DNA from: a virus
IMG/VR virus record: IMGVR_UViG_3300009378_000005
Span: 1-64,000 of that record
DNA: 64,000 nt
Reading direction: 5' to 3' (one strand)
The number at the start of each line of letters is the position of its first letter. The stretch's first letter is position 1. Of this stretch, positions 1-22,765 are shown in pieces. Position numbers and translations under genes: made by a program. The notes under the pieces are model-generated. The model did no database searches. It had not been told where the DNA came from and saw only the letters and a program-made list of their open reading frames with translations.

Positions 1-3000
1 CTACCTGCAGCGAGGTATGATGTTCCATTAGATAGATTCTGTAACGAACCAGACAAGCCAGACGATGCAACAACATTTCCTGAGAATGTTGTTCCTGAAA
101 CAGTTGCGACGACACTGTCGTCTATGCTAAATGTTGTGCTAGAAAGATCTAACCCTGTGCCAGCTGTGTAGGTGGTGTTTGTGTCTGTTGATGCAATTGT
201 GACCTGACCTGTTGACCCTGTAGAAATAGTTACGTTGCTACCTGCTGCAAGGTATGAAGTTCCATCTGTCAATCTTGTTAGTGATCCAGAAAGACCCTGT
301 GTGTGCTTTGTCACTCCTGTAAATGATGATCCCGATATTGTTGCAACTGTACTATCGTTTATGTTGAGTGTTACTGCCCCAGACGTTCCGCCACCGGTCA
401 ATCCAGTTCCTGCAGTAACGGATGATATGTCTCCAACTGTTCCGTCATTTGTGATTGTTAGTGCACCGCTAGAACCCGTTGAGATAGAAATTCCAGATCC
501 AGCAATGAGATATTCAGTTCCATCAGTCAGAGCTGTAAGTGATCCGCTTAATCCGGATGTAAATCTGGCCGTTCCCGTAACTGACATGTCAGACACAGAA
601 CCTGAAAAGTGTACGTTGTCTGTAAATGTTGTTCCAGATGAAACTTGAGCTACGACATTAGTGTTTATTGCAACGGTTATAGATGATCCCACACCAGCAT
701 CAGATATTGTCAGACCAGAGCCTGCTGCAAGAACTCTTTCATTTTGAAGAGACCCTGTTGATGATAGCACAACATATGACGCTGCATCATCAGCACCTCC
801 AGCTGCTGCTGTAACAGTAACGTTTCCAGACGATCCTGTTGATAGTGTTATGTTTTTTCCTGCAACTAAGTACGGTGATCCGTCAGCTAGTGTTGTTAAT
901 GATCCACTAAGACTATCTGCAAAAACAGATCCTGACAGATAAATGCTGTTATCTATCTTTGTTGAATCAGATGAGATGTGAACCTGTGGTCCCTTAATTG
1001 ATCCCGTTAACGTAAAATCTGAAACAGATCCTGACAAATACACATCATTGCTAAATTTAACTCCTCCTGTAAAATTGCTTCCTGAAACTGTCGCAACAAC
1101 ACTATCATCGATATTTAACGTTACTGCACCAGATGTTCCTCCTCCTGAGAGACCTGTTCCTGCTGTTACAGCTGTTATATCTCCAACTGTTCCATCATTA
1201 GTGATTGTCAGAGAGCCATCTGTGCCTGTTGAAATTGAGATTCCAGAACCGGCTATAAGATATTCTGATCCGTCAGACAATGTCGTTAGTGATCCGCTAA
1301 GACCACTATTGAACCTAGCTGTTCCTGTTGCAACAAACGATGACACAGATCCGTGAAAATAAACTCCGGCAGGATCTATCGAAAACAACTGTGTTCCGGC
1401 ATTTTGAAGAGAGACACCCGTCTGTCCGTCAATCGTTACCTTTCCTGACTTTGTCTCTATCTCTGTTGCAACTGATGACTCAATTATCTTTGAAGCAGAG
1501 CTTTTTATTGTCCCTGTTAGAGTAAAATCTGATACAGATCCTGAGAGATGTATACTTCCAGATCCAACATATACGCTTCCTGTCGTTGCAATGATTACAT
1601 CTGTTCCGCCCTGCTTGATCTTTATTCCATCTCGTCCATCTAGAGTTAAAAATCCTCCTGCTGTCTCTATCTCTGTTGCAACTGATGACTCAATTATCTT
1701 TGAGACATTACTTTTAATTGTTCCTGTTAATGAGAAGTCAGACACTGATCCTGATAGGTGTATATTATCATCAAACTTTGCACCCTTGTCAAACTCTGCC
1801 TGATTATCAAATCTCACATATCCATCAAATTCGACGTCTGGATCACTTGTCGATCCTCCGGTATTTGCAAACCAAACATCTCCTTGATTTTCAAACTTAA
1901 CATCTCTGCTATCCTGAACAGAGATAACAGCAACTCCTCCCTCATGAATCGACACGCCTGTCTTTCCATCAAGAACTAGCTTCCCTGCTGACGTCTCTAT
2001 CTCTGTTGCAACTGATGACTCAATAATCTTTGAAGCTGAACTCTTTATCGTTCCTGTTAGTGCGAAGTCAGACACTGATCCTGAAAGGTGAACACTACCA
2101 CTATGCTGTACTGGACCGTTAAAATATGAATTAGATGATACCTCTAATCCAGAGCTTGCCTTTATTGTTCCGGTTGCTGTGAAATCAGAAACTGTTGCAG
2201 AAAGATATAGATTATTTTCAATCTTAGTTGCATCTGATGTTACATGAAGAGAAGGTCCTCGTATGGCTCCGGTCAAAATAAAACCCGAGACGCTTCCTGA
2301 CATGTGAACAGCATCATTAAAATATGATGATCCGGTTACTTGTATTCCTGAGCTTGCCTTTATTGTTCCGGTTGCTGTGAAATCAGAAACAGATCCTGAG
2401 AAGTGTACGTTGTCTGTGAACGTTGTACCTGATACCAGTTTTGCGACGACATTTTCATTAATTCTTAAAAGGTATGTTCCACCAGCGCCGCCATCCGTCG
2501 CCCTAAGGCCGTTATCTAGTCCTAATAATCTCTCATTTGGCAAAGAGCTCGTCAGGCCTAAAACTACAAACTTTGCATCTTTATCAGCGCCTCCTGCACC
2601 CGCTGAGGGAGCTGAAATGATTACCTGGCCGGCTGCATCTGAACCAGAATCAATCGTGATATTATCACCTGCGCTAAGATAGCTCCTTCCATCTATTAAC
2701 CTGTGTAAGGATCCTGTCATTCCTGTTTGAAATTTTGCTGAACCCGTTGCCTCAAACGCTGATATTGACTGTGAAAAATGAACCCTGCTATCAAACAGCG
2801 TCGATGAAGCAGATACATGAAACTGTGCACCTCTTATCGAACCTGTTAAGTTGAAACCAGATACATTTCCAAACAGGTATGTATTGCTCTCCATAGTCAC
2901 ATCAGACTTAAAGATGCTTGCTGATGAAACAAACGCTAAGTCATTTGTATTTGCAGCAATCGTTATATTTCCGCCAGCGCCTCCATCATTAAATGTTAGA

Positions 3001-3377
3001 CCTGCGCCGGCTGCAAGGACCCTCTCGGCATTTAATGACCCTGTTGCCTCAAGAACAACAAATGTTGCGTCTCTATCTCCTTTTCCGCTACCAACATTCG
3101 CTTTTATGTGTATTGATCCTTTTGATCCAGTCGTAACAATAATATTGTCTCCGCCCTGAATAAAGTCTGATCCGTCAATTAGCTTTGTAATTGATCCAGT
3201 TATTCCTCCAGATGCAACTAAAACACCCTTTGTAGTTAATTGACTTTTAAATGCGTCTGAGTCTAGTCCAACCTGAAAGCTGTTTGGAGAGATAATTCTA
3301 TCAACTCTTTCAGAGAGTTTCTTTTGGAGAACTATAAAGTCACTCTTTTTTATATCACTCTTTCTACTAGACGACAT
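1..3377 (-). CDS. Giant repeat-rich tail fibre/structural protein, C-terminus cut by window edge
   Basis: Reading frame stays open from an ATG at 3377 down to base 1, so at least 1125 residues with no stop inside the window. The N-terminus (MSSSRKSDIKKSDFIVLQKK) is a short charged segment. Most of the rest is Gly/Ser/Thr/Asp-rich beta-type sequence with recurring blocks such as DGTEYLIAGSGISIS, GTGLTGGGTSGAVTLNI and SKIIESSVATEIET. Such repeats are typical of trimeric phage fibres and spikes. It is followed by two more fibre-like genes and lies downstream of the endolysin block, as expected for distal tail genes. The start is supported by AAGAG upstream; no other long frame competes. Function in host recognition is inferred; no enzymatic domain is visible in the part present. 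Confidence 0.8.
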   Translation of the reverse strand, partial: MSSSRKSDIKKSDFIVLQKKLSERVDRIISPNSFQVGLDSDAFKSQLTTKGVLVASGGITGSITKLIDGSDFIQGGDNIIVTTGSKGSIHIKANVGSGKGDRDATFVVLEATGSLNAERVLAAGAGLTFNDGGAGGNITIAANTNDLAFVSSASIFKSDVTMESNTYLFGNVSGFNLTGSIRGAQFHVSASSTLFDSRVHFSQSISAFEATGSAKFQTGMTGSLHRLIDGRSYLSAGDNITIDSGSDAAGQVIISAPSAGAGGADKDAKFVVLGLTSSLPNERLLGLDNGLRATDGGAGGTYLLRINENVVAKLVSGTTFTDNVHFSGSVSDFTATGTIKASSGIQVTGSSYFNDAVHMSGSVSGFILTGAIRGPSLHVTSDATKIENNLYLSATVSDFTATGTIKASSGLEVSSNSYFNGPVQHSGSVHLSGSVSDFALTGTIKSSASKIIESSVATEIETSAGKLVLDGKTGVSIHEGGVAVISVQDSRDVKFENQGDVWFANTGGSTSDPDVEFDGYVRFDNQAEFDKGAKFDDNIHLSGSVSDFSLTGTIKSNVSKIIESSVATEIETAGGFLTLDGRDGIKIKQGGTDVIIATTGSVYVGSGSIHLSGSVSDFTLTGTIKSSASKIIESSVATEIETKSGKVTIDGQTGVSLQNAGTQLFSIDPAGVYFHGSVSSFVATGTARFNSGLSGSLTTLSDGSEYLIAGSGISISTGTDGSLTITNDGTVGDITAVTAGTGLSGGGTSGAVTLNIDDSVVATVSGSNFTGGVKFSNDVYLSGSVSDFTLTGSIKGPQVHISSDSTKIDNSIYLSGSVFADSLSGSLTTLADGSPYLVAGKNITLSTGSSGNVTVTAAAGGADDAASYVVLSSTGSLQNERVLAAGSGLTISDAGVGSSITVAINTNVVAQVSSGTTFTDNVHFSGSVSDMSVTGTARFTSGLSGSLTALTDGTEYLIAGSGISISTGSSGALTITNDGTVGDISSVTAGTGLTGGGTSGAVTLNINDSTVATISGSSFTGVTKHTQGLSGSLTRLTDGTSYLAAGSNVTISTGSTGQVTIASTDTNTTYTAGTGLDLSSTTFSIDDSVVATVSGTTFSGNVVASSGLSGSLQNLSNGTSYLAAG
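1451..2032. repeat. Three near-identical ~40-nt repeats inside the fibre gene
   Basis: Near-identical copies lie at about 1451-1493, 1662-1703 and 1992-2032. On the coding strand they encode SKIIESSVATEIET. They alternate with other shared blocks (for example those around 360-500 and 1110-1270 encoding the GLTGGGTSGAVTLNI and DGTEYLIAGSG motifs). This shows that the fibre grew by module duplication. Confidence 0.8.
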
Positions 3378-3426
3378 CTGTAACTCTTAACATAGATAGT
3401 TTCACTTAAAGCACACTCATCCAACA

Positions 3427-3433
3427 ATAAATA
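3427..3433 (-). promoter_or_regulatory. Candidate late promoter element TATTTAT
   Basis: Reads TATTTAT on the minus strand, 50 nt before the fibre start, in a 142-nt gene-free gap (3378-3519). The same 7-mer recurs in other late-gene spacers. It is the reverse complement of the T4 late-promoter core, so the assignment is tentative. I see nothing else in this gap. Confidence 0.3.
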
Positions 3434-3519
3434 TAGTTGTTATGAAGAGTAAGCCAGTTGATTTTAATCAACAGCGATATTTTATAAGGCGACTTACTGT
3501 CATAGATTAATTAAAATAG

Positions 3520-4476
3520 CTAGCTTTTTGTAAGTGTTTCGATGTATATCAAATCAGTGCCGTCAAATGTTACACCAGTATTTTCATAGCCGTATGTTGC
3601 ACCCTCAATTCTTCCATTCATGTACACCTCACCAATAACCTCTTTTGCATTAAGTGTAAACGTATGTGTTCCCGATGCGAGGCCTTCAAGATACCATATA
3701 ATTTCTGATGTGTCTGCACAGTTGTTCCATATGTACCTTGCGCCATAAAATATTGGGCTTAATGACCCATTGCTACCGCTAAACTGATAAACAGCGCCGC
3801 CGGCCGAAGCCTCAGCTATCTGTGATGGATAAAACATCATTTTAACATCTGACGTTTCTGTTAGTGTTATACTGGCACTAACAATACCTTGCATCGTATT
3901 TGTAAGAGAAATTTCTTTATTGTTTGTGCCACTAGCAAATAATATATTTTTGGACACCATTTCTGTAACAGCAACACCAGATATTTTTCCAACCCTCGTT
4001 AGCGCACGATTAACTGTCTCAGCCCATATAATATCAAAACCTTTTCCATTTGTGTCATTGTTTGCATAGTGATTACATGTAATTTGTCCTGCAAGAGGTT
4101 TTCCTTTAAAGTAAAACGTATGTGATCCAGTGGGTACATTTTCAAAAACATGCATACATGAAAGACTTTGTGCAACATATTGTGTACTTTTGCTAAAAGT
4201 TATATATTCCGGACCTGTTTCATCATAGCTTGTGCTAAACTGTCCCAATGCCGATCCACCATTTTCTTCATATGCAATGCTGGGACAAAATGTCACTTTA
4301 ACATCTGAGACTGTGTCAAGCGTCAACTCAGTACTGACAATTGTCTTGTATGGCTTTCCTGATCCGGGTAGGTCTAGCCACGTAGTTCCCTCGTTAGCCC
4401 CGCTTGAAAATAAAACATTTGAACCGTCTGATGATGTGATAAATGTTACACCTGTAATTTTTTTTATATTTGACAT
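3520..4476 (-). CDS. Two-module virion-type beta protein, function unknown
   Basis: 318 residues made of two homologous halves of about 155 residues. Each half opens with a GVTF/GVAV beta segment and FSSG/FASG, has a central SDVK-x-x-F-x-PS motif, and ends near a YIET or WAET segment. A third copy is the complete neighbouring gene at 4477-4956. The protein lacks a signal peptide, membrane segment or recognised catalytic motif. Its position between fibre genes suggests a fibre-associated or receptor/glycan-binding accessory. That is inferred from context only; I do not recognise the family. Confidence 0.65.
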   Translation of the reverse strand: MSNIKKITGVTFITSSDGSNVLFSSGANEGTTWLDLPGSGKPYKTIVSTELTLDTVSDVKVTFCPSIAYEENGGSALGQFSTSYDETGPEYITFSKSTQYVAQSLSCMHVFENVPTGSHTFYFKGKPLAGQITCNHYANNDTNGKGFDIIWAETVNRALTRVGKISGVAVTEMVSKNILFASGTNNKEISLTNTMQGIVSASITLTETSDVKMMFYPSQIAEASAGGAVYQFSGSNGSLSPIFYGARYIWNNCADTSEIIWYLEGLASGTHTFTLNAKEVIGEVYMNGRIEGATYGYENTGVTFDGTDLIYIETLTKS

Positions 4477-4956
4477 TTATCTGTTTATTGTTTCAATATA
4501 AAGTACATCTCTTCCTTCGTTGACGCCGTCGACGCCAGCTACACGATTCATTTTTACCTCACCATTAATTGATTTGACCATCAGCGTAAATGTTTGTGTT
4601 CCAGACGGAACATCTGAAAAAATCCACTGGAAACCTGCAGAGTGTGTTTCCCATGACCACCCACCACGTGTAAAATACCATTCAGGGCTGTTTTCAATTG
4701 TTCCGTCACTACAGCTAATGTATGCAAGCCCACGGCCTTGAGCTACATCTTCACGAATTCGAGAAGGAGACCAATAAGCTTTTACATCGGAAGTAGTTGT
4801 AAGAGCCAGACTTGCGCTAACATGTGACACATAGCTACTTCCAATATCAACATCATCAAATAGCTCATATGTTCCAGATGAAAATAGTTTTGGTAGCTCG
4901 TCTACAGGGCTGCTGCTAGTTGTAAACGTAGCACCGCTAAAGACAATTGCACCCAT
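4477..4956 (-). CDS. Single-module homologue of the adjacent two-module tail protein
   Basis: 159 residues forming one copy of the module that is duplicated in the downstream gene. Shared landmarks are LFSSGTYEL near the start, SDVKAYWSPS in the centre, VPSGTQTFTL, GEVKMNR and the closing VLYIETINR. It ends one base before the two-module gene starts, so the pair is almost certainly cotranscribed and arose by tandem duplication. Probable accessory tail/fibre protein; function not recognised. Confidence 0.65.
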   Translation of the reverse strand: MGAIVFSGATFTTSSSPVDELPKLFSSGTYELFDDVDIGSSYVSHVSASLALTTTSDVKAYWSPSRIREDVAQGRGLAYISCSDGTIENSPEWYFTRGGWSWETHSAGFQWIFSDVPSGTQTFTLMVKSINGEVKMNRVAGVDGVNEGRDVLYIETINR

Positions 4957-12769: not shown

Positions 12770-13267
12770 TTAATCCTCTGGATCAACAATTAAAACGTCT
12801 TCAGATAGAGATTTCATCTCTTCATACGACTCTAAGTCAATGCTAGCTTCATCTATGCTGAATTGTTTTACCATCGCTATCTCAAGAATGTCATCGACAT
12901 ACTGGCTATATTCTGTGTTTCTCATGATATCGCAAAATTCATTTTTTCTAAATTTTTTATCTATGACGATCTCACCTGTCTTTACATCTGTTACACTCAT
13001 GGTCTTCCATCCACCTGTGCCTGCTAGCAAGATCTCCTTTCCATTAACAGTCTCAGGCCCGTGCTTTCTCAAAAGATCAAAAATTTGCTCGTGCTCTTTA
13101 ATTCCCACACCAAAGTGAATCTCAAAATTTATTTTTCTAAATGGAGGGGCAACCTTATTTTTAATTGTCTTTGCAGACACATGAATTCCGATGACATCAT
13201 CACCATCCTTTATCTGCTGTCCAGCTCCTAGCTTTATTCTAGTTGAAGCATGAAAAGGTATTGCTCT
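12770..13267 (-). CDS. uvsX: UvsX/RecA recombinase, 3' exon (C-terminal part after group I intron)
   Basis: Exon 2 encodes 165 residues. It starts RAIPFHASTRIKLGAG, the RecA strand that normally follows TTPGG, and continues AKTIKNKVAPPFRKINFEI, a classic RecA motif, with an acidic C-terminal tail ending VDPED. An apparent ORF start at ATG 13180 is internal and would omit 29 residues of the conserved core. The exon must join exon 1 (ending at 14376) by RNA splicing; the join keeps frame exactly. Together with the extein parts the mature protein would be 386 aa. Confidence 0.88.
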   Translation of the reverse strand, partial: RAIPFHASTRIKLGAGQQIKDGDDVIGIHVSAKTIKNKVAPPFRKINFEIHFGVGIKEHEQIFDLLRKHGPETVNGKEILLAGTGGWKTMSVTDVKTGEIVIDKKFRKNEFCDIMRNTEYSQYVDDILEIAMVKQFSIDEASIDLESYEEMKSLSEDVLIVDPED

Positions 13268-13271
13268 CTTG

Positions 13272-14108
13272 CTAATCTACTACTTTCGTAGCAGTATGGA
13301 CTATATCTTCAAAAATTTTATTGTGTGAAATAATTTTTAGTTCGCTTTCCCAATATCTTATAACTCTAAATCCGCTTTCTTCGATTACACTTGTTTTCTT
13401 TTTATCATATTCCCATATTTCTTTTGCAAGCAGTTTCTTTCCACCAATTAAATCTTCAGAAGAAAACTTAGATGGATTTGCATGCCAATAATCACCATCG
13501 ATCTCAACAATGGTATTATACTTGGGAATATAAAAATCACAAACATATCTTTTTACAGATTTTTGAGTTTCATATTGAATATTAATCGCAACTAAAATAC
13601 TAGCAAACATTTGTTCAGGCTTTGTATTCTTAGAACATGATGGCAATATATTTTTGCTATGCCAGTTCTCCTGACGCTTGTCTGCTTCTTCAACACCATA
13701 TCTAATTACCCATCTTTCATAATTTGACTTTTTCATCCAGTCAGTCACACCTTTCTTTCCAATAAACAATCGTGGAAAGCTTTCTGGTGATTCACTAATC
13801 TTTTTCTTCATTAGTTTTGACTGTGATTCTCTATACTCTTTGCTTTGAGTGGCTTTACGACAGCTTTTCGCCTTTCTTTCTCGTATTTCTTTTGTCCCGT
13901 AAACTTTATCTGCCATTTTTTGACAGTTTTGCCTATTTTCTTCAGAATTTCGCCAATCAGAAAATCTATCAAAATTACCCATTATTGATTCTGGAAATTT
14001 TGATTTGTAGTCGGTTGTTGTCATATTATGTTTTTTAAGATGAGTATTTGTTATGGCCTTGAAGGTTTTACCGCATACTTCACACTTGTATTTTTGTCCC
14101 GCGCTCAT
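13272..14108 (-). CDS. Intron-encoded Vsr-like (EDxHD-type) homing endonuclease
   Basis: 278 residues from ATG 14108, preferred over an upstream in-frame start because AAGGAG (14118-14123) precedes it by nine bases. The N-terminus has a Cys2-His-type finger (YKCEVCGKTF...HLKKHNM). The middle is rich in basic helical DNA-binding sequence. The C-terminal nuclease domain has VEIDGDYWHANPSKF and FRVIRYWESEL, the Vsr/very-short-patch-repair-like signature seen in phage homing enzymes. Located in the intron P8 region. Its last ~15 codons overlap the ribozyme S element and P9 hairpin, so that sequence is under double constraint. A TATTTAT element lies 22 nt before the start. Confidence 0.85.
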   Translation of the reverse strand: MSAGQKYKCEVCGKTFKAITNTHLKKHNMTTTDYKSKFPESIMGNFDRFSDWRNSEENRQNCQKMADKVYGTKEIRERKAKSCRKATQSKEYRESQSKLMKKKISESPESFPRLFIGKKGVTDWMKKSNYERWVIRYGVEEADKRQENWHSKNILPSCSKNTKPEQMFASILVAINIQYETQKSVKRYVCDFYIPKYNTIVEIDGDYWHANPSKFSSEDLIGGKKLLAKEIWEYDKKKTSVIEESGFRVIRYWESELKIISHNKIFEDIVHTATKVVD

Positions 14109-14129
14109 AGGTGTTTTCTCCTTACATGT

Positions 14130-14136
14130 ATAAATA
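14130..14136 (-). promoter_or_regulatory. Candidate late promoter element for the intronic endonuclease
   Basis: TATTTAT in the minus direction, 22 nt upstream of the endonuclease ATG and just before its Shine-Dalgarno. T4 intron endonucleases are known to have private promoters inside the intron, so a dedicated promoter here is plausible. Assignment rests only on motif recurrence in this window. Confidence 0.3.
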
Positions 14137-14375
14137 TTATGAAACGGTAAAGCTTTACCATAAAATTTATTTCTTTGTAAGGTTAATAACACTAGTCTCT
14201 GAACCTTTGACCTGTCACCAGGAAACTTGGCTGCTGATTACCCAATCCTACTTCTTTTTGACATTCACGCTCGCAATTACTCGCCACGTTGTAGTGAAGT
14301 CGGCTCTTAGGGCGTCCCAGACAATTCACGGGATGAATTTGCATTTTATACTCGTGCTTGGGAGGCAAGCATTTC

Positions 14376-14738
14376 ACCACCCGGAGTTGTGTTGTGATTA
14401 ATATGGCCATTAGCAATATAAGCATTTCCATCTGGAACTGAAACATCTACTACATTCATTTTTCCTTGTAGTTGTTTTGCATCAGGATTGTCTTTTAGCT
14501 TCGTCCACTCTCCGTCGACAAGTGTTCTATGAACTGACGTTGCATTTAAATCACCAAGCATATACGATGTATCCACTGCTGGCTTCACTACGAAATTAGT
14601 CATTGGCTTAAAGCCATCTGGACCTTCAATCATAGTACCAACATCGGAAAGATCATATTCACAAGGTGTTTCGAAATCATCAATCCCTAAAATACTTGCG
14701 TATTCAGAAAAAGTCATCTCTCTTTCAATTTGTGCCAT
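14376..14738 (-). CDS. uvsX: UvsX C-terminal precursor, 5' exon: C-half of split intein plus first five C-extein residues
   Basis: Starts at ATG 14738 behind a perfect AAGGAG (14745-14750, 6-nt spacer), inside the end of the N-terminal ORF (14-nt overlap, different frame). It encodes a 116-residue intein C-half (MAQIEREMTFSEYAS...), including block B T-x-x-H in NATSVHRTL and blocks F/G in VSVPDGNAYIANGHINHN, then extein TTPGG at the 5' splice site. Read through unspliced, it terminates after MLASQARV inside the intron. The spliced mRNA continues in the exon at 12770-13267. Confidence 0.88.
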
Positions 14739-14835
14739 TATTATCTCCTTTGGCGTTATATTCACGGAACCTCTCCGCGAAAAGTGAGTTTTCGTCGTAA
14801 CGAATTTTAATTTTTGTTGTTTCTGGGTTTACGCA
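14391..14835 (-). other. Atypically split intein in UvsX (IntN 36 aa, IntC 116 aa)
   Basis: IntN begins at Cys (14833-14835) in the conserved YGDPD|CVNPETTKIKI junction and ends at the ORF stop (14725-14727). IntC runs from 14738 to 14391 and ends HN before extein Thr. The two halves are in different frames on overlapping ORFs, so the intein must act in trans. A 36-aa N-half is far shorter than the ~100 aa of standard split inteins and resembles the atypical class reported from metagenomic phage TerL and UvsX genes. The join gives GDPD-TTPGG, the expected RecA L2-region sequence. No endonuclease domain is present. Confidence 0.88.
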
Positions 14836-15483
14836 ATCTGGATCTCCATAGAGAACACCTATCTTTGTTCTGACCTGATTTAATATAACAAACAGCACAT
14901 TTTGATTTGCAATCACACCTGTGATCTTTCTCATTCCTTTTGAAATTGCTCGTGCTTGAAGGCCTATTGATTCTTTATCATAGTCACCCAGAAGTTCTGC
15001 CTTTGGAGAAGAAGCAGCAACAGAATCCCACACAATAGTAACAGGAATGTCTTTATTCATTGCCTTTGCTTTCATTATTGTTGATTCAGCAATTGACAAA
15101 ACCTCTTCAGTACAATGAGTGTCAACATATACAAATCGTTTTGATACATCAACTCCAAGCATTCCTAGATTTTCAACACTTGTTGCATTCTCTGTGTCAA
15201 TATACACAACAATACCGCCCATCTTTTGAGTCGATGCAGCAATCTGTGTAGCAATATGTGACTTACCGATTGATGGCGGCCCAAATATCTCTATGATCCT
15301 CCCCTCAGGGATGCCACCGTCTCGTCTATTTGAGCATATATAGTCTAAAAGCCTTGAGCCCGTAGAGATCCATCTCTTGACATGAGTTGGTGACTCATCA
15401 CATGAAAGATTATAAGCGACTCTAGAGCCATGCTCCTTGTTGAGGGCACTTATGAGGTCAGATGTAAAGTCTTGTTTTGACAT
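14725..15483 (-). CDS. uvsX: UvsX/RecA recombinase N-terminal precursor carrying IntN
   Basis: 252 residues: 216 of RecA N-extein and 36 of intein. Walker A is at ~67-75 (IFGPPSIGKSH), then VVYIDTENA, the hydrophobic Walker B strand TIVWDSVAA, GLQARAISKGMRK, and VILNQVRTKIGVLYGDPD just before the intein. UvsX loads on gp32-covered ssDNA and drives strand exchange and recombination-dependent replication. The intein sits in the most conserved DNA-binding/ATPase region, as usual for RecA inteins. Without trans-splicing this half lacks the L2 loop and C-terminal core and should be inactive. Confidence 0.92.
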   Translation of the reverse strand: MSKQDFTSDLISALNKEHGSRVAYNLSCDESPTHVKRWISTGSRLLDYICSNRRDGGIPEGRIIEIFGPPSIGKSHIATQIAASTQKMGGIVVYIDTENATSVENLGMLGVDVSKRFVYVDTHCTEEVLSIAESTIMKAKAMNKDIPVTIVWDSVAASSPKAELLGDYDKESIGLQARAISKGMRKITGVIANQNVLFVILNQVRTKIGVLYGDPDCVNPETTKIKIRYDENSLFAERFREYNAKGDNNGTN

Positions 15484-18584: not shown

Positions 18585-19766
18585 TTACACAAAATTCTCA
18601 ATCTTTACAGGAAACTTTTGTGATATTCCCCTTATCTTTACTCCCTCAGATGCGATTTTTTCTATTTTAGCTACACTTTTTTCAGGTGCATCAATAATCA
18701 TTGCATCATGAATTACAAACACTGGCAATAGATTCACATTCATGTTCTTACATCTTTCTAACAGGTATCTAAATCCAAGAAGAGACGCATCAACACCAGT
18801 AGACTGTAAATAATGATTTACATGAGATGAATCAGATAAAATTTTTCTTCCATATAGATTTTCTATAAATCCATTCTGATCATAAAAGGATTTTAGGCCC
18901 CTCTCAAGATTTCTAATTTTAAAGTATGATTTAATGGATGATAATATCATATCAGCATCGTTGTCTGGAGGAAGCTTAAGTGAAAGATTCTTTGATGTCA
19001 TTCCGTATAGGCAGCAAATTGTTGATATTTTTGATATATCTCTTGATATCTTACCATCGAATATGTTCTTGCTAATGTCATCATAGATATCATTTGGTGC
19101 TGCAATACCAGCTACGTCCAAAGCAATTCTCGGTTCAAGCGATACAAAATCAACCTGTAACAATCTCCCATCATGAAATCTAGATGAAAAAATAGACCTA
19201 TTTTCTTTTTTTAGCGTCAAGATGTTTGGACCGCTTTTTACAGTTAGCCTTCCTGTAGTTGATTTTGACTGATCGTATCTTATTTGTTGAATTAATCCAT
19301 CGATCTTTGGTCTAAATTTAAAAAGAGAGGAATGAAGATCATCTATATTCTGTAATCGACTTTTATTTACTTTTGCTCTTTTTAAATCCGTCAGAAGCTT
19401 TCTATTTTCAACAAATACATCATCGTAATACGATCCACTTATTTCATCAATTATCTTATATGCACTTCTTTTAATTCTAAAAATATGATTCTTAAATTGG
19501 TCACACGAAATAGAATATGCCCATGGAACATAGGACCTATCACTATCTTTTCTCAGAGTCTGCCACATGTTTTTTTGGCTTTCTGTGTCGAACAATGTCA
19601 GGCTTTTATCTAGCGCCAGTGCAACAGCAGAAAGATCTCGTGATCTATCATTGTCTCCCAAAGACCATACATTATCTGGAATTATCGATATCCACGAAAA
19701 GCTATCACCATCACAAAGAAGATGTCTATCTGTTCCCATCACCTTTGAAGAGATTGCAAGCTTCAT
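18585..19766 (-). CDS. Short family-A DNA polymerase (polymerase domain only)
   Basis: 393 residues, much shorter than Pol I or T7 polymerase; no 3'-5' exonuclease domain is visible. Motif A is LLQVDFVSLEPRIA (D206, E211, R213). Motif B keeps the R-x3-K-x7-YG spacing (R242, K246, Y254, G255), with Ile250 at the position equivalent to E. coli Phe762. A Gln-containing helix is HYLQSTGVDA. Motif C is FVIHDAMIID (D354), where the usual Glu after Asp is Ala. The N-terminal ~190 residues probably supply a reduced thumb. It sits beside gp32, uvsX and helicase genes. Whether it is the replicative enzyme or an accessory one cannot be decided here. Confidence 0.85.
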   Translation of the reverse strand: MKLAISSKVMGTDRHLLCDGDSFSWISIIPDNVWSLGDNDRSRDLSAVALALDKSLTLFDTESQKNMWQTLRKDSDRSYVPWAYSISCDQFKNHIFRIKRSAYKIIDEISGSYYDDVFVENRKLLTDLKRAKVNKSRLQNIDDLHSSLFKFRPKIDGLIQQIRYDQSKSTTGRLTVKSGPNILTLKKENRSIFSSRFHDGRLLQVDFVSLEPRIALDVAGIAAPNDIYDDISKNIFDGKISRDISKISTICCLYGMTSKNLSLKLPPDNDADMILSSIKSYFKIRNLERGLKSFYDQNGFIENLYGRKILSDSSHVNHYLQSTGVDASLLGFRYLLERCKNMNVNLLPVFVIHDAMIIDAPEKSVAKIEKIASEGVKIRGISQKFPVKIENFV

Positions 19767-19792
19767 ATAATGATTGTAATCTTTACAATAGA

Positions 19793-22765
19793 CTATGTAT
19801 CGATATTTGTAGACTGAGACATTAACTTAGGTAGCACGCTTGAAAGGGTATTTCTAAATGTGTTTACTGTTCCGTTTGAAACAAACGTTAAGTTGAAACT
19901 TGTTTCAAATTTTCCACTTGATAAAGCGTGACTTATATTTGTCACTGTATAGAGGTTATCTGCTGTTGTACCGGTATTTAAATCAAGAAAAAACTGCTGT
20001 CCATACTCTATGATTGGACATCCAAGCATTGTAACACGAACAGATGCAGGAATTACCTTGACGTCTTCAATTGCAGCAGCTTGAGATGTTGATGATTGTG
20101 GATCTTTATCAACTAATGAGTTAAGTAATAGAGCATCGCCAACCGCGCCGCCTGTGTTTGCACTAAGTGTTACACTTTTTAATGCTGTAAACTGTGATCC
20201 AAAGTTTATATTGGGAACCGTTTGCTTAATAAGACGCTTAATATTTTCAGGATTAGTTTTTGATATAATCATATTATAGTCTGTTAAATTTTCACCTTTA
20301 GATGGTGACTCAACGTGGTTTTCATCCTGACTTCTTGACAAGACGTTTCTACTCTGGCCAGGATCGATTCCAACATTAGTAGCATCCATTTCTGACGTCG
20401 AAGAATCTGCGCCCTTTATTAGGCTTGATATCTCTGAGTCATTAAGTGCTGACAGTAGAAATAATTGATCTGCATGAGGCGTTGCACTCTGATCAAACAC
20501 ATGAATTCTAAGAATTACCTTATTATTATCACCAACTGCAGGAAGAGAATCCATGTAAAATTTAACAACCGGTAGTCTAAATTCTCCTGAAGCTGTGCCG
20601 CAATTGTCACTTGTGTATATTTCCTTGAGCCTTTCTTCAATTTCTTTATTTATTTTTTCAATGCTTTTTTGGGCTTCTTCACCCTGATTTGATGACTCAG
20701 AAGCTGTAGCCTTTCGCCTATATAAAGATGTTAGCCCGTAGTTCACATTAGAAGGATTTGACACGATATCTTTTATTAGAGATAAAAACCCATTAACTGT
20801 TAACGATGGATTACTTCTAATCTTATTAAGCATCTTTATGCGAAATTCCTCTATATTGACAACAAACTGTGATATGTCAAGCCTTCTAGCCGCAGCAGCC
20901 TGTGAATTAAACCTATAAAAGAACACCTGTGTCTCATCAAATCTACCTGACGAAGCAAGAGGATATCCTACAAAGCTCATTATCAGCTTTCCAAGAGAGA
21001 CAAACTCATTATTCTGAAGACCTGATTTTACACCTGGAAAAATCTCATCTGTTATCATTCTGTCATCAGGTAAAAACGGATCAGTCGCATCTTCGTGCCT
21101 CAGGGCGGCTATTTTCCCCTTTAATTCAGATTTTAGTGATTGATTTGACTCATTTAATGAAATTAGCTCTCCACCGTTACCGTCCTCTCCTATTAGCTTT
21201 GTTATGACGTTTGTCAATGCTTTTGTGCTTGTTGACGTGTTTATGTCTGCCTGTGGAGACAATATATTGTGAAATTCTTCAAATAACTCTCTTGATATCA
21301 CAGATGATGTTGATGATGCATTTCTTAAGTTTACTGTCACCTGATTTCTTATGTCTCTTAGCTGATTATCGGCAGCGTCTGTAATATCTTGAAGCTTTTT
21401 AGATAATATTGACGTCAATATTGGCTTAAATATAGAAACAGGCACAACATCTCCTGTGGCAACAGGAACATTAATCGAATCTGTTCCTCCTCGAGAGGCT
21501 AATCTTAAAGTTATTTTTACAGTTCCATCATTTCCCATTGAGTAGTTTGATGAAACTGTATGGAAAAGATTTTTTGTCTTCATGCTGTTTAAAAACTTAC
21601 CTATGGGATTATTTGAACCAGACCCACCTTCAGGATGATTCCAACCCCATTCAATTAAAACATTCGTTGTTCCAAATAGATCAATTGCAACAATTGGAGC
21701 GATATCAGCAAGCCTTGACCTATCATGAAGAGTTATATCAACTGTTGCTGTCTTTGAACTAAGCAGTGCTCTTCCCAGCCCTTCAATCTTTATATTGATT
21801 CCGTTTAATGTCATAAGAGGTTTAAACGGATCGAGAATATTTCCTGCCCGTCCTGAAAAATCTCCTCTATTAATATCAGCATTGATTAACGTCTGCGGGC
21901 TCGTAAATAGCTCCATTCCTGCCGTCGATACAGATGGGTTTATTCCAAGATCATCTCCTGCAACTCCGGCAGAAATTGTTCCAAAGAACTCATCTTTTGC
22001 ACCATCATCAAAAATCGAATTATTCATTCCAATTGAATCATTAGGATCATTTTTTGAATTCATTCCAAGAAATCTTAAGAGAGATAGCTGTCTTGTCCTT
22101 TCTCCCAAGGCTGTAGGGACAACAGACATAAACCTAAGATTTATATACGGAACACATCTTGACATCTCAACAGTTGAAATAGCATTAGAAAATAAAGTGA
22201 TGCTATCTGTATTTCTTGTGGGTATTCCCAATCTAAGATTCGGAAATACAAATGCTGACAGTGTTGGACTTTTAAATCTATCAGGTGATGATGTTGATGT
22301 GTTAACGACAGACACACCCAGCTGTGTCTCATTGCTTGATAAGCCGTCATCTGTGCTTATGATTTCTGATCGTGTCATATTCTTAACACTATCATTATCA
22401 CCCTCCATAAAAAAGGATTTTGGTGTTTTTGCTGCGCCTTTCTCAAAATAGACCTTTATAAAATTTTCTATATCACTGTCTTCACTATTTAGCTGCTCTC
22501 CGATTGTATTAAGAATATCCTTTGTAAAAAATGAGCCTTCAGTTGTATCACACAGGGCTTGCTGCAGCAGAGATACTAATTCTGTGTCTGCTTGTGATAT
22601 ATTTGACGTTCCTCCAGTTGCTATATTTGCTGCGCTTAGAATTGCTGCAGCTTGTTGATCTGAAGAAGACCCTTTTGTCATCAGAGATATGATGTCATCT
22701 CTTCCTGTTGAGGCAAAATACTTTAAAAGACCCTCAGTTGCTTCGCTTAAATAACTTATTGCCAC
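19793..22765 (-). CDS. Large baseplate/tail protein, probable hub component
   Basis: 990 residues, starting at GTG 22765 behind AAGGTG. The central part (residues ~290-430) has KIEGLGRALLSSKTATVDITLHD, VLIEWGWNHPEG and beta-rich segments. The C-terminus (CPIIEYGQQFFLDLNTGT, VTNISHALSSGKFETSFNLTF) resembles the end of gpD/gp27-type hub proteins, where a beta domain closes with NISHxLxxGxFxT. It abuts the LysM-like tail protein and the large tail gene, consistent with baseplate assembly. Hub assignment is inferred from motif style and order, not confirmed. Confidence 0.65.
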   Translation of the reverse strand: MAISYLSEATEGLLKYFASTGRDDIISLMTKGSSSDQQAAAILSAANIATGGTSNISQADTELVSLLQQALCDTTEGSFFTKDILNTIGEQLNSEDSDIENFIKVYFEKGAAKTPKSFFMEGDNDSVKNMTRSEIISTDDGLSSNETQLGVSVVNTSTSSPDRFKSPTLSAFVFPNLRLGIPTRNTDSITLFSNAISTVEMSRCVPYINLRFMSVVPTALGERTRQLSLLRFLGMNSKNDPNDSIGMNNSIFDDGAKDEFFGTISAGVAGDDLGINPSVSTAGMELFTSPQTLINADINRGDFSGRAGNILDPFKPLMTLNGINIKIEGLGRALLSSKTATVDITLHDRSRLADIAPIVAIDLFGTTNVLIEWGWNHPEGGSGSNNPIGKFLNSMKTKNLFHTVSSNYSMGNDGTVKITLRLASRGGTDSINVPVATGDVVPVSIFKPILTSILSKKLQDITDAADNQLRDIRNQVTVNLRNASSTSSVISRELFEEFHNILSPQADINTSTSTKALTNVITKLIGEDGNGGELISLNESNQSLKSELKGKIAALRHEDATDPFLPDDRMITDEIFPGVKSGLQNNEFVSLGKLIMSFVGYPLASSGRFDETQVFFYRFNSQAAAARRLDISQFVVNIEEFRIKMLNKIRSNPSLTVNGFLSLIKDIVSNPSNVNYGLTSLYRRKATASESSNQGEEAQKSIEKINKEIEERLKEIYTSDNCGTASGEFRLPVVKFYMDSLPAVGDNNKVILRIHVFDQSATPHADQLFLLSALNDSEISSLIKGADSSTSEMDATNVGIDPGQSRNVLSRSQDENHVESPSKGENLTDYNMIISKTNPENIKRLIKQTVPNINFGSQFTALKSVTLSANTGGAVGDALLLNSLVDKDPQSSTSQAAAIEDVKVIPASVRVTMLGCPIIEYGQQFFLDLNTGTTADNLYTVTNISHALSSGKFETSFNLTFVSNGTVNTFRNTLSSVLPKLMSQSTNIDT

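What the first reader, a model, noticed from the sequence alone, without database searches (positions are those of the whole stretch)
12770..15483. UvsX must be built by both RNA splicing and protein trans-splicing
The recA/uvsX gene is broken twice. An atypically split intein separates the N-ORF (14725-15483) from the C-ORF starting at 14738. The C-ORF is then broken by a group I intron (13268-14375) only five codons after the intein junction. Removing both gives GDPD-TTPGG-RAIPFHAS, contiguous RecA sequence, and a 386-aa product, near T4 UvsX (391 aa). Seeing both layers within 15 bp of each other in one conserved motif is unusual, and implies two mobile elements converged on the same codons.
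Basis: partly seen in the sequence, partly recalled or inferred. Interest (0 to 1): 0.95.

Follow-up and report, generated by a model that had tools for sequence, protein, structure and literature searches.

The report
Phage recombinase gene needing two splicings
An uncultured phage carries its only known copy of a DNA-repair gene cut twice within 15 bases, so that, by sequence, the protein can form only if a self-splicing RNA intron is removed and two separate protein pieces are then joined; relatives show that the same few codons are a repeated landing site for such mobile elements, once three at a time.

Summary
uvsX is interrupted by an atypically split intein (IntN 36 aa, IntC 116 aa) and, exactly 15 nt downstream, by a 1,108-nt group I intron encoding a Vsr-like homing endonuclease. 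Removing both gives a 386-aa RecA/UvsX protein.

Added here: 35 of 35 intron-bearing loci share one 5' splice site and a facing guide sequence. Covariation supports P3, P6 and P9. Three compact relatives pass Rfam's group I threshold; the window's own intron does not. An unsplit homologue of the intein is predicted to fold as an intein (pLDDT 93; Z up to 15). Exteins and IntC are under purifying selection.

The site is a hotspot. Within 12 codons of the RecA L2 motif there are three insertion points: intein A, intein B (the window's) and the intron. They occur as a, b, i, a+i, b+i and a+b+i. The a+b+i virus has UvsX in three polypeptides, with a 7-residue middle piece, plus the intron. Intein B also exists unsplit. 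The intron has been exchanged separately from the intein, yet in one pair both elements are shared as a block between diverged genes.

All is sequence inference; no splicing was measured. New variant of known kinds.

The parts
14836..15483 (-). UvsX/RecA N-extein, 216 aa, ends GDPD
   Evidence: Pfam RecA E 3.6e-43 and PHROG 97 UvsX-like E 1.6e-50 on the N-ORF; 94% aa identity to uninterrupted L254/L006
14728..14835 (-). IntN of intein B, 36 aa, Cys1 (stop codon 14725-14727)
   Evidence: its first part aligns with the start of the unsplit inteins L173 and L184
14391..14738 (-). IntC of intein B, 116 aa; TSVH (block B) and ...HINHN end; own start ATG 14738 preceded by AAAGGAG
   Evidence: Pfam Intein_splicing only 13.4 bits, below cut-off 35.8
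14376..14390 (-). 15-nt middle exon, TTPGG, between intein and intron; its last 7 nt form the 5' strand of P1
13268..14375 (-). group I intron, 1,108 nt
14360..14366 (-). internal guide GCCUCCC facing exon GGGUGGU (14376-14382): U.G at the splice site, one U-U mismatch (P1)
   Evidence: sequence; guide of this kind in 35 of 35 loci (29 GCCTCCC, 3 GCCTCCT, 3 GCTTCCC)
14327..14335 (-). P3 5' strand CAUCCCGUG; its partner GAGCGCGGGAC (14096-14106) lies in the first codons of the endonuclease ORF
   Evidence: covarying pair CG 11, UA 10, UG 1 of 22
14193..14204 (-). R element GUUCAGAGACUA (P7 5' strand)
   Evidence: alignment; TTCA[AG]AGACTA found in all 35 intron loci
14120..14182 (-). helix CCTTACA/TGTAAGG that holds the Shine-Dalgarno AAGGAG of the endonuclease ORF (P7.x position)
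   Evidence: mean own helix 7.3 bp against 5.9 for mismatched partners, 0 of 1000 permutations as good; weak (4-5 bp) in L181, L182, L196 and L197
13272..14108 (-). Vsr-like homing endonuclease ORF, 278 aa (stop 13272-13274), N-terminal Cys/His finger; by the order of elements it sits in the P8 loop, and both ORF ends overlap the ribozyme core
   Evidence: Pfam Vsr 3.9e-8, DUF559 7.3e-10; TIGR00632 vsr 1e-11, below its cut-off
13298..13310 (-). S element GAAGAUAUAGUCC (P7 3' strand), also codons EDIV of the endonuclease
13277..13294 (-). P9 hairpin CUGCUAC-GAAA-GUAGUAG
   Evidence: covarying pairs, some with exceptions (columns 371-377/382-388)
12770..13267 (-). UvsX C-extein (exon 2), RAIPFHAS... 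to stop, 165 aa

Best explanation
The window carries the phage's only known uvsX, in a form that needs two successive splicing reactions. (1) The transcript self-splices: a group I intron leaves after the codons for TTPGG. (2) Two polypeptides are made from the mRNA, with the second start codon overlapping the first stop: UvsX-N+IntN and IntC+TTPGG+UvsX-C. (3) IntN and IntC associate and trans-splice, joining GDPD to TTPGG inside the DNA-binding L2 motif and giving 386-aa UvsX. Unspliced RNA yields only IntC plus a 14-residue tail, and is the template for the intron's Vsr-like endonuclease. (4) How it got there: the two elements are separate homing-type parasites of the same conserved motif. 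The intron, with its endonuclease, is the more mobile. I think it most likely that intron homing often drags the endonuclease-less intein along, because the 15 bp between them are too short for recombination to separate them easily. Steps 1-3 are inferred from sequence with strong comparative support. Step 4 fits patterns of identity but is not shown.
For: In-frame joins at both junctions. 35 of 35 intron-bearing loci (22 distinct introns) have the exon GGTGGT and a facing guide, and 34 of 34 complete introns end in G at the frame-defined 3' site; only 4 of 85 distinct empty alleles have GGTGGT. Of 75 pairs in the automatic consensus fold of the 22 introns, 22 show compensatory changes without exception, among them pairs of P3, the P5 region, P6 and P9. 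Three compact relatives exceed Rfam gathering. Cys1, the block-B His, NHN and +1 Thr (Ser in L174) in the 17 distinct intein B versions. An unsplit homologue (L173, one 546-codon frame) is modelled as an intein: pLDDT 93.2, best Foldseek hit 6vgv VidaL intein E 1.1e-4, VIA Z up to 15.0. dN/dS where computable: N-exteins 0.018-0.058 (5 pairs), first 30 codons of the C-extein 0.028-0.131 (3 pairs), IntC 0.011-0.076 (7 pairs), endonuclease 0.11-0.28 (3 pairs). No second uvsX copy in two records of the virus. Mobility: the window sits in a clade of 21 rows otherwise all empty (98/96; empties thinned to about a third), while its intein relatives L084/L085 lie elsewhere. L084/L085 DNA identity: N-extein 68-75%, IntN 88%, IntC 97%, middle exon 100%, intron 5' part 99%, intron 3' end 88%, C-extein 69%. 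None of the 17 intein B versions has an endonuclease inside it or between its halves; 14 of the 17 have the intron.
Against: No RNA or protein data. The window's own intron is below Rfam gathering and L195's gave no hit; 23 of 75 pairs of the automatic fold have at least one non-standard cell; the Pfam and NCBIfam intein models score intein B below cut-off. Against co-homing as a rule: L087 carries an L089-type intein but an L112-type intron and endonuclease (HEG data reject L087+L090, p-AU 2e-38, group named after seeing the tree; the converse test on IntC data is not significant, p 0.066). In L188/L097 the endonuclease dS is 0.08 against 0.68 in the intein, so the intron also moves alone. 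The tree-based association test of intein B with the intron is underpowered and not significant (5-6 pairs, median p 0.5). The 14 of 17 is inflated: several lineages were first found through their intron endonuclease; in the scan with the window's IntC alone it is 7 of 10 distinct lineages (typed). The L084/L085 introns lack an intact endonuclease, so another enzyme or ordinary recombination may have moved that block.
Confidence: 0.8

Rival explanations
1. Both splicing layers are real, but intein and intron are unrelated passengers: each invaded the L2 codons on its own and they meet only because both target a highly conserved stretch; ordinary phage recombination explains shared blocks.
For: Conflicting intein and intron/HEG trees; intein-only and intron-only alleles; faster intron turnover by dS; association on the tree not significant.
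Against: 7 of 10 distinct intein B lineages found with the IntC query carry the intron, always 15 nt away, while 79 of the 80 nearest uvsX genes are empty; L084/L085 share both elements between diverged exteins.
Confidence: 0.47
2. The gene is a relic: uvsX is dead in this phage and the host RecA or another recombinase replaces it.
For: No frame encodes the whole protein, and no RNA or protein product has been seen.
Against: Open frames up to each junction; low dN/dS in N-exteins (0.018-0.058, 5 pairs) and IntC (0.011-0.076, 7 pairs); the ribozyme covaries; inteins only 47-48% identical to the window's keep the splicing residues.
Confidence: 0.03
3. Assembly or chimera artefact.
For: All records are metagenomic.
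Against: The same structure in three records of this virus (G000, and contigs ending 009128_001551 and 013111_000613) and in diverged relatives; in the a+b+i virus, four further contigs match the first at 3,996-4,000 of 4,000 bases, two of the five contigs being from one sample.
Confidence: 0.01
4. The layered splicing is retained as a regulatory switch that times UvsX production, for example linking recombination to translation or stress, and is not merely parasitic.
For: Insertion in the L2 loop should keep UvsX inactive until both steps finish; a helix can occlude the endonuclease Shine-Dalgarno.
Against: Patchy distribution: 85 of 116 distinct uvsX genes sampled here are empty; nothing here tests conditional splicing.
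Confidence: 0.06

Closest known systems
Fractured genes with split inteins and Vsr-like homing endonucleases (Dassa et al. 2009, NAR 37:2560; reference seen in the list of PMC3653736; content recalled, paper not held)
   Same: Phage replication/repair gene broken by a split intein; Vsr-like endonuclease family, also said there to occur in group I introns; in relatives L188 and L249 an endonuclease ORF lies between the intein halves as described there
   Different: In the window nothing lies between the intein halves (ORFs overlap); the endonuclease sits in a group I intron 15 nt downstream of the same intein; one relative carries two split inteins plus the intron in one motif. Whether that paper already holds such a locus could not be checked
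[quoted passage not shown]
   Same: RNA-level and protein-level splicing in one phage gene
   Different: Contiguous intein there as recalled; here the intein is split, the distance is 15 nt and the pair recurs across lineages
Atypically split inteins VidaL, AceL-TerL, GOS-TerL, PolB16 (PMC13014065, passages)
   Same: Short IntN; VidaL 6vgv is the best Foldseek match; intein B's split follows the first helix of the model (S2-like), intein A's IntN is about 17 aa (S1-like)
   Different: No sequence match to solved inteins at E<0.01; here in uvsX; the same family also occurs unsplit
Neighbouring inteins of haloarchaeal mcm (PMC10643990, passages including the abstract)
   Same: Several homing elements in one conserved region; question of co-homing against interference
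   Different: There both elements carry active endonucleases and block co-homing; here intein B has none, so a single break could serve both
T4 td/nrdB/nrdD introns and co-conversion during homing (PMC2988022, passages)
   Same: Group I intron carrying an endonuclease ORF; homing needs RecA/UvsX and co-converts flanking exon
   Different: Here the intron sits inside uvsX, the recombinase used for homing, and carries a Vsr-like enzyme

Membership tests
Group I self-splicing intron | Conserved core (P4/P5/P6, R and S forming P7, P3, P9) | tested here: met
   Rfam RF00028 E 1.2e-6 on the 5' half and 0.005 on the 3' half, both below gathering; of 7 related loci 3 above gathering (79.5, 79.2, 70.9 bits), 3 below, L195 without a hit
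Group I self-splicing intron | P1 with U.G at the 5' splice site and terminal G of the intron | tested here: met
   Exon GGTGGT and guide GC[CT]TCC[CT] in 35 of 35 loci; terminal G in 34 of 34 complete introns. In one search the guide columns of L196, L174, L181, L182 are misaligned
Group I self-splicing intron | Covariation of core helices | tested here: met
   75 pairs: 22 compensatory without exception, 14 compensatory with exceptions, 23 in all with some non-standard cell. P7 itself does not vary and P4 is mixed
Group I self-splicing intron | Self-splicing with exogenous guanosine | not testable with these tools
   needs RNA
Split intein, class 1, atypical split site | Cys1, block-B T/SxxH, C-terminal HN, +1 nucleophile | tested here: met
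   Window C1, TSVH, HN, +1 Thr; T/SxxH in 32 of 32 loci, Ser in L174 (SGEH) and L181-L183 (SGDH)
Split intein, class 1, atypical split site | HINT fold | tested here: met
   Unsplit homologue L173 pLDDT 93.2; 69 of 961 aligned chains Z>=8; the rows listed are inteins or intein-like domains. The window's own two halves were not folded together
Split intein, class 1, atypical split site | Match to curated intein family models | tested here: inconclusive
   Pfam PF14890 13.4 of 35.8 bits; TIGR01443 13.3 of 15.6 bits
Split intein, class 1, atypical split site | Ligates its exteins in trans | not testable with these tools
   needs protein
Fractured gene (Dassa type, definition recalled) | Free-standing endonuclease gene between the two intein halves | tested here: not met
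   Window: ORFs overlap by 14 nt. Met for intein A in the L188 group and L249
Vsr-like homing endonuclease | Vsr domain similarity | tested here: met
   PF03852 33.5 bits against cut-off 27; TIGR00632 45.1 bits against 97.85, so it does not reach NCBI's cut-off for Vsr proper
Vsr-like homing endonuclease | Cuts the intron-less allele | not testable with these tools
   needs enzyme

The most novel reading that the evidence does not exclude
The split intein and the group I intron act as one composite mobile unit that works at two levels: one endonuclease, encoded in the RNA-level element, cuts the empty uvsX motif once and installs both, while the protein-level element has no endonuclease of its own. 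The a+b+i virus extends this: UvsX assembled from three polypeptides, with a 7-residue middle extein held between IntC-A and IntN-B, plus an intron-spliced mRNA. The unsplit, overlap-split and endonuclease-split versions of these inteins in one gene family would be a series of steps in how inteins become split.
Probability: 0.35. Interest if true: 0.88.

Novelty: new variant of a known kind. Interest (0 to 1): 0.74.

Why it matters
It is a clear natural case of one gene needing RNA self-splicing and protein trans-splicing at almost the same codons, and it recurs. The allele series (empty; intein A; intein B; intron; pairs; triple; intein unsplit and split) makes two open questions testable in one gene family: how atypically split inteins arise, and whether an element without an endonuclease can spread by hitch-hiking on a neighbour instead of being blocked by it as in haloarchaeal mcm. 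The target is UvsX, the recombinase that homing uses, which adds a mechanistic handle. The short-IntN inteins are also candidates for protein-ligation tools.

Tried and rejected
UvsX model: AlphaFold of uninterrupted L006 gave pLDDT 55, so it was not used; the position in the L2 motif rests on the RecA alignment and recalled L2 boundaries. Folding the raw intron 5' part gave no signal (z 0.28); the structure evidence is comparative only. Sequence search against PDB: IntC alone no match at E 10; profile A5 best E 0.018; unsplit intein A one hit, a designed repeat protein, not an intein, so I do not claim that intein A is VidaL. No IntC-B in 50,697 phage records at E 0.01 nor in genome contigs (25 pattern matches, none confirmed). 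Programmed frameshifting to make the intein in cis was rejected: several relatives have a stop and a gap before the second start. P10 pairing of the 3' exon was looked at by eye and is not consistent. The association test of intein B with the intron failed for want of independent pairs.

Errors corrected: C1/C2 values for the window used a shifted coordinate and were replaced. The 146 empty loci count many contigs twice; the distinct number is 85 (exact DNA of the last 500 nt of the N-half). The 5'-end P1 columns are misaligned in four introns; one search recounted the guide by pattern. On re-checking I lowered the composite-unit odds from 0.38 to 0.35 and the overall confidence from 0.82 to 0.80, because the 14 of 17 is partly due to how the loci were found. 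Left out of some counts: L201 (incomplete intron), L189 and L200 (no N-half); L178 gave no row (its IntC has no ATG in range). The weaker HEG matches, 45 of 72 rows and 49 of 80, were not analysed.
Full report
What is in the window. On the minus strand lies a phage replication block: DnaB-type helicase, exonuclease, uvsX, single-strand binding protein and a polymerase-like ORF, with a major head protein of PHROG 138 elsewhere; I take it for a T4-like phage. The record is a 76,158-base virus record. uvsX is in pieces: N-extein 14836-15483, IntN 14728-14835, IntC 14391-14738, a 15-nt exon 14376-14390 (TTPGG), an intron 13268-14375 holding a 278-aa ORF, and exon 2 12770-13267. The joined product is 386 aa. 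It aligns through the junctions with E. coli RecA: GDPD|TTPGG|RAIPFHAS against GNPE|TTTGG|NALKFYAS. That is the L2 DNA-binding region (boundaries recalled).

The intron is a group I intron. Alone it gives two sub-threshold Rfam hits. The decisive evidence is comparative. Thirty-five intron-bearing loci were read, 22 distinct introns. In 35 of 35 the intron follows GGTGGT of the two glycine codons and has a facing guide (29 GCCTCCC, 3 GCCTCCT, 3 GCTTCCC), with U.G at the splice site; 34 of 34 complete ones end in G at the 3' site that the reading frame fixes. Among 85 distinct uninterrupted genes only 4 have GGTGGT and 15 have T at -1, so the exon letters are those the ribozyme needs. In the automatic consensus fold, 22 of 75 pairs show compensatory changes without exception, 14 more with exceptions, and 23 in all have some non-standard cell; the clean ones include pairs of P3, the P5 region, P6 and P9. 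In P3 the change falls in a codon of the endonuclease, Gly or Glu in SA[G/E]Q, so protein and ribozyme covary. Of seven related loci scanned with Rfam, the three introns without an intact ORF (L084, L085, L181) exceed gathering, three with the ORF score 36.9-41.9 bits and L195 gave no hit. The short ones keep ORF remnants and look like decayed forms. The ORF's Shine-Dalgarno lies in a helix whose strands match within an intron better than between introns (7.3 against 5.9 bp, 0 of 1000 permutations), though it is weak in four of the 22.

The split intein. Intein B has Cys1, T/SxxH, NHN and +1 Thr (Ser in L174) in its 17 distinct versions. Curated intein models score it below cut-off. Two lineages, L173/L093 and L184, carry it unsplit in one frame of 546 or 561 codons. 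The L173 intein was modelled at pLDDT 93.2. Its best Foldseek match is the VidaL intein 6vgv (E 1.1e-4), and by VIA-align the rows listed are inteins or intein-like domains, Z up to 15.0. In the window the linker of that intein has become a stop, a frame offset and a new start with AAAGGAG before it. In 14 split versions IntN is 25-39 aa and the second ORF overlaps the first by up to 32 nt or follows it by up to 28 nt, by a mechanical choice of ATG. Selection: dN/dS 0.018-0.058 for N-exteins (5 pairs), 0.028-0.131 for the first 30 codons of the C-extein (3 pairs), 0.011-0.076 for IntC (7 pairs) and 0.11-0.28 for the first 92 codons of the endonuclease (3 pairs); dS could not be computed for the other extein comparisons.

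A hotspot with three ports. Reading the motif NQIRTKVG^VMYGDPT^TTPGG^KAIPFH across relatives gives port a (after KVG), an intein with an IntN of about 17 aa when split; port b, the window's intein; port i, the intron. Found: b alone (L173/L093, L178/L179, L184); i alone (L115/L194, L195, L196, L197, L198, L201); b+i (window and most others); a alone (L248, L249); a+i (L118); a+b+i (five contigs of one virus; four match the first at 3,996-4,000 of 4,000 bases). In the last, an ORF of 180 codons encodes IntC-A, then TMYGDPT, then IntN-B. UvsX there would need three polypeptides, two trans-splicings and one intron removal. A Vsr-like ORF lies between IntN-A and IntC-A in that virus and a related one in L249. 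In L248 intein A is unsplit and a related free-standing nuclease ORF lies directly downstream of uvsX. Unsplit with a neighbouring nuclease, then split by one: this looks like a series.

How the elements move. The window's uvsX N-half is nearest to uninterrupted genes: 79 of the 80 nearest contigs are empty and the other is the same virus. On the tree, built with empties thinned to about a third, it lies in a clade of 21 rows otherwise all empty (98/96), while its intein's nearest relatives, L084 and L085, lie in another clade. So the elements arrived horizontally. L084 and L085 share IntC (97%), middle exon (100%) and the 5' part of the intron (99%) between N-exteins only 68-75% alike, with IntN and the intron's 3' end at 88%: most simply one block. 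But L087 has an intein like L089's (92% DNA) and an intron and endonuclease like L112's (96% and 82%), against 57% between the L087 and L112 IntC. HEG data reject L087+L090 (p-AU 2e-38, chosen after seeing the tree); the converse test on the short IntC is not significant (p 0.066). L188 and L201 share a 98% intron 5' part although one has intein B upstream and the other does not, so the enzyme's target is unlikely to depend on sequence beyond the 15 bp on that side (inference). Synonymous divergence falls from extein to intein to endonuclease in L188/L097 (1.43, 0.68, 0.08) and L105/L106 (C-extein 1.26, 0.69, 0.24).

Reading. The splicing architecture is close to certain from sequence. That the intron drives the intein by co-conversion is my preferred account: intein B never carries an endonuclease in 17 distinct versions, 14 of them have the intron (7 of 10 if only the scan with the window's IntC is counted), and T4 homing co-converts flanks and needs UvsX or RecA (PMC2988022, passages). 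It is not shown: the association test on the tree is not significant and the intron clearly also moves alone. Haloarchaeal mcm inteins with two active endonucleases block co-homing (PMC10643990, passages); a one-endonuclease pair is the natural contrast.

Novelty. A search for 'split intein', 'group I intron' and 'UvsX' together found no paper; with RecA and phage instead, one review, whose shown passages do not mention this. The listings (titles, starts of abstracts) showed none that by title describes it; eight papers were opened and only passages read. The library lacks most subscription papers and Dassa 2009. A phage gene with both an intron and an intein is known (SPbeta nrdE, PMC3653736, passages), and Vsr-type intron endonucleases are known (PMC11878797, passages; annotated Staphylococcus phages). 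I therefore call it a new variant of a known kind.

Noticed in passing
L188 (same contig as L107), 582-4884; also L095, L098, L190, L191: uvsX broken by two split inteins and the intron; a 180-codon ORF encodes IntC-A, the 7-residue extein TMYGDPT and IntN-B.
   Followed up: partly
L248 2-2213: Intein A unsplit in uvsX, with a free-standing 337-aa nuclease ORF related to the Vsr-like ones directly downstream, before the exonuclease gene.
   Followed up: partly
L178/L179, exon ACAACTCCGGGTGGT: Intein B without the intron, yet with the exon letters typical of intron-bearing alleles; may be precise intron loss or a co-conversion scar.
   Followed up: no
window 14094-14108 and relatives: Residue 4 of the endonuclease (Gly or Glu in SA[G/E]Q) follows the covarying P3 pair of the ribozyme.
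   Followed up: partly
window 18585-22681: The polymerase-like ORF 18585-19766 matches only a late part of PHROG 17; the neighbouring 962-aa ORF 19793-22681 has no PHROG match at E 0.001. A divided or unusual polymerase is possible.
   Followed up: no
L188, L118, L248, L249 at the intein A junction: Intein A alleles have Thr at +1 (TMYGDP) where the 80 empty alleles typed have Val (GVMYGDP or close), suggesting co-conversion of the +1 codon.
   Followed up: no
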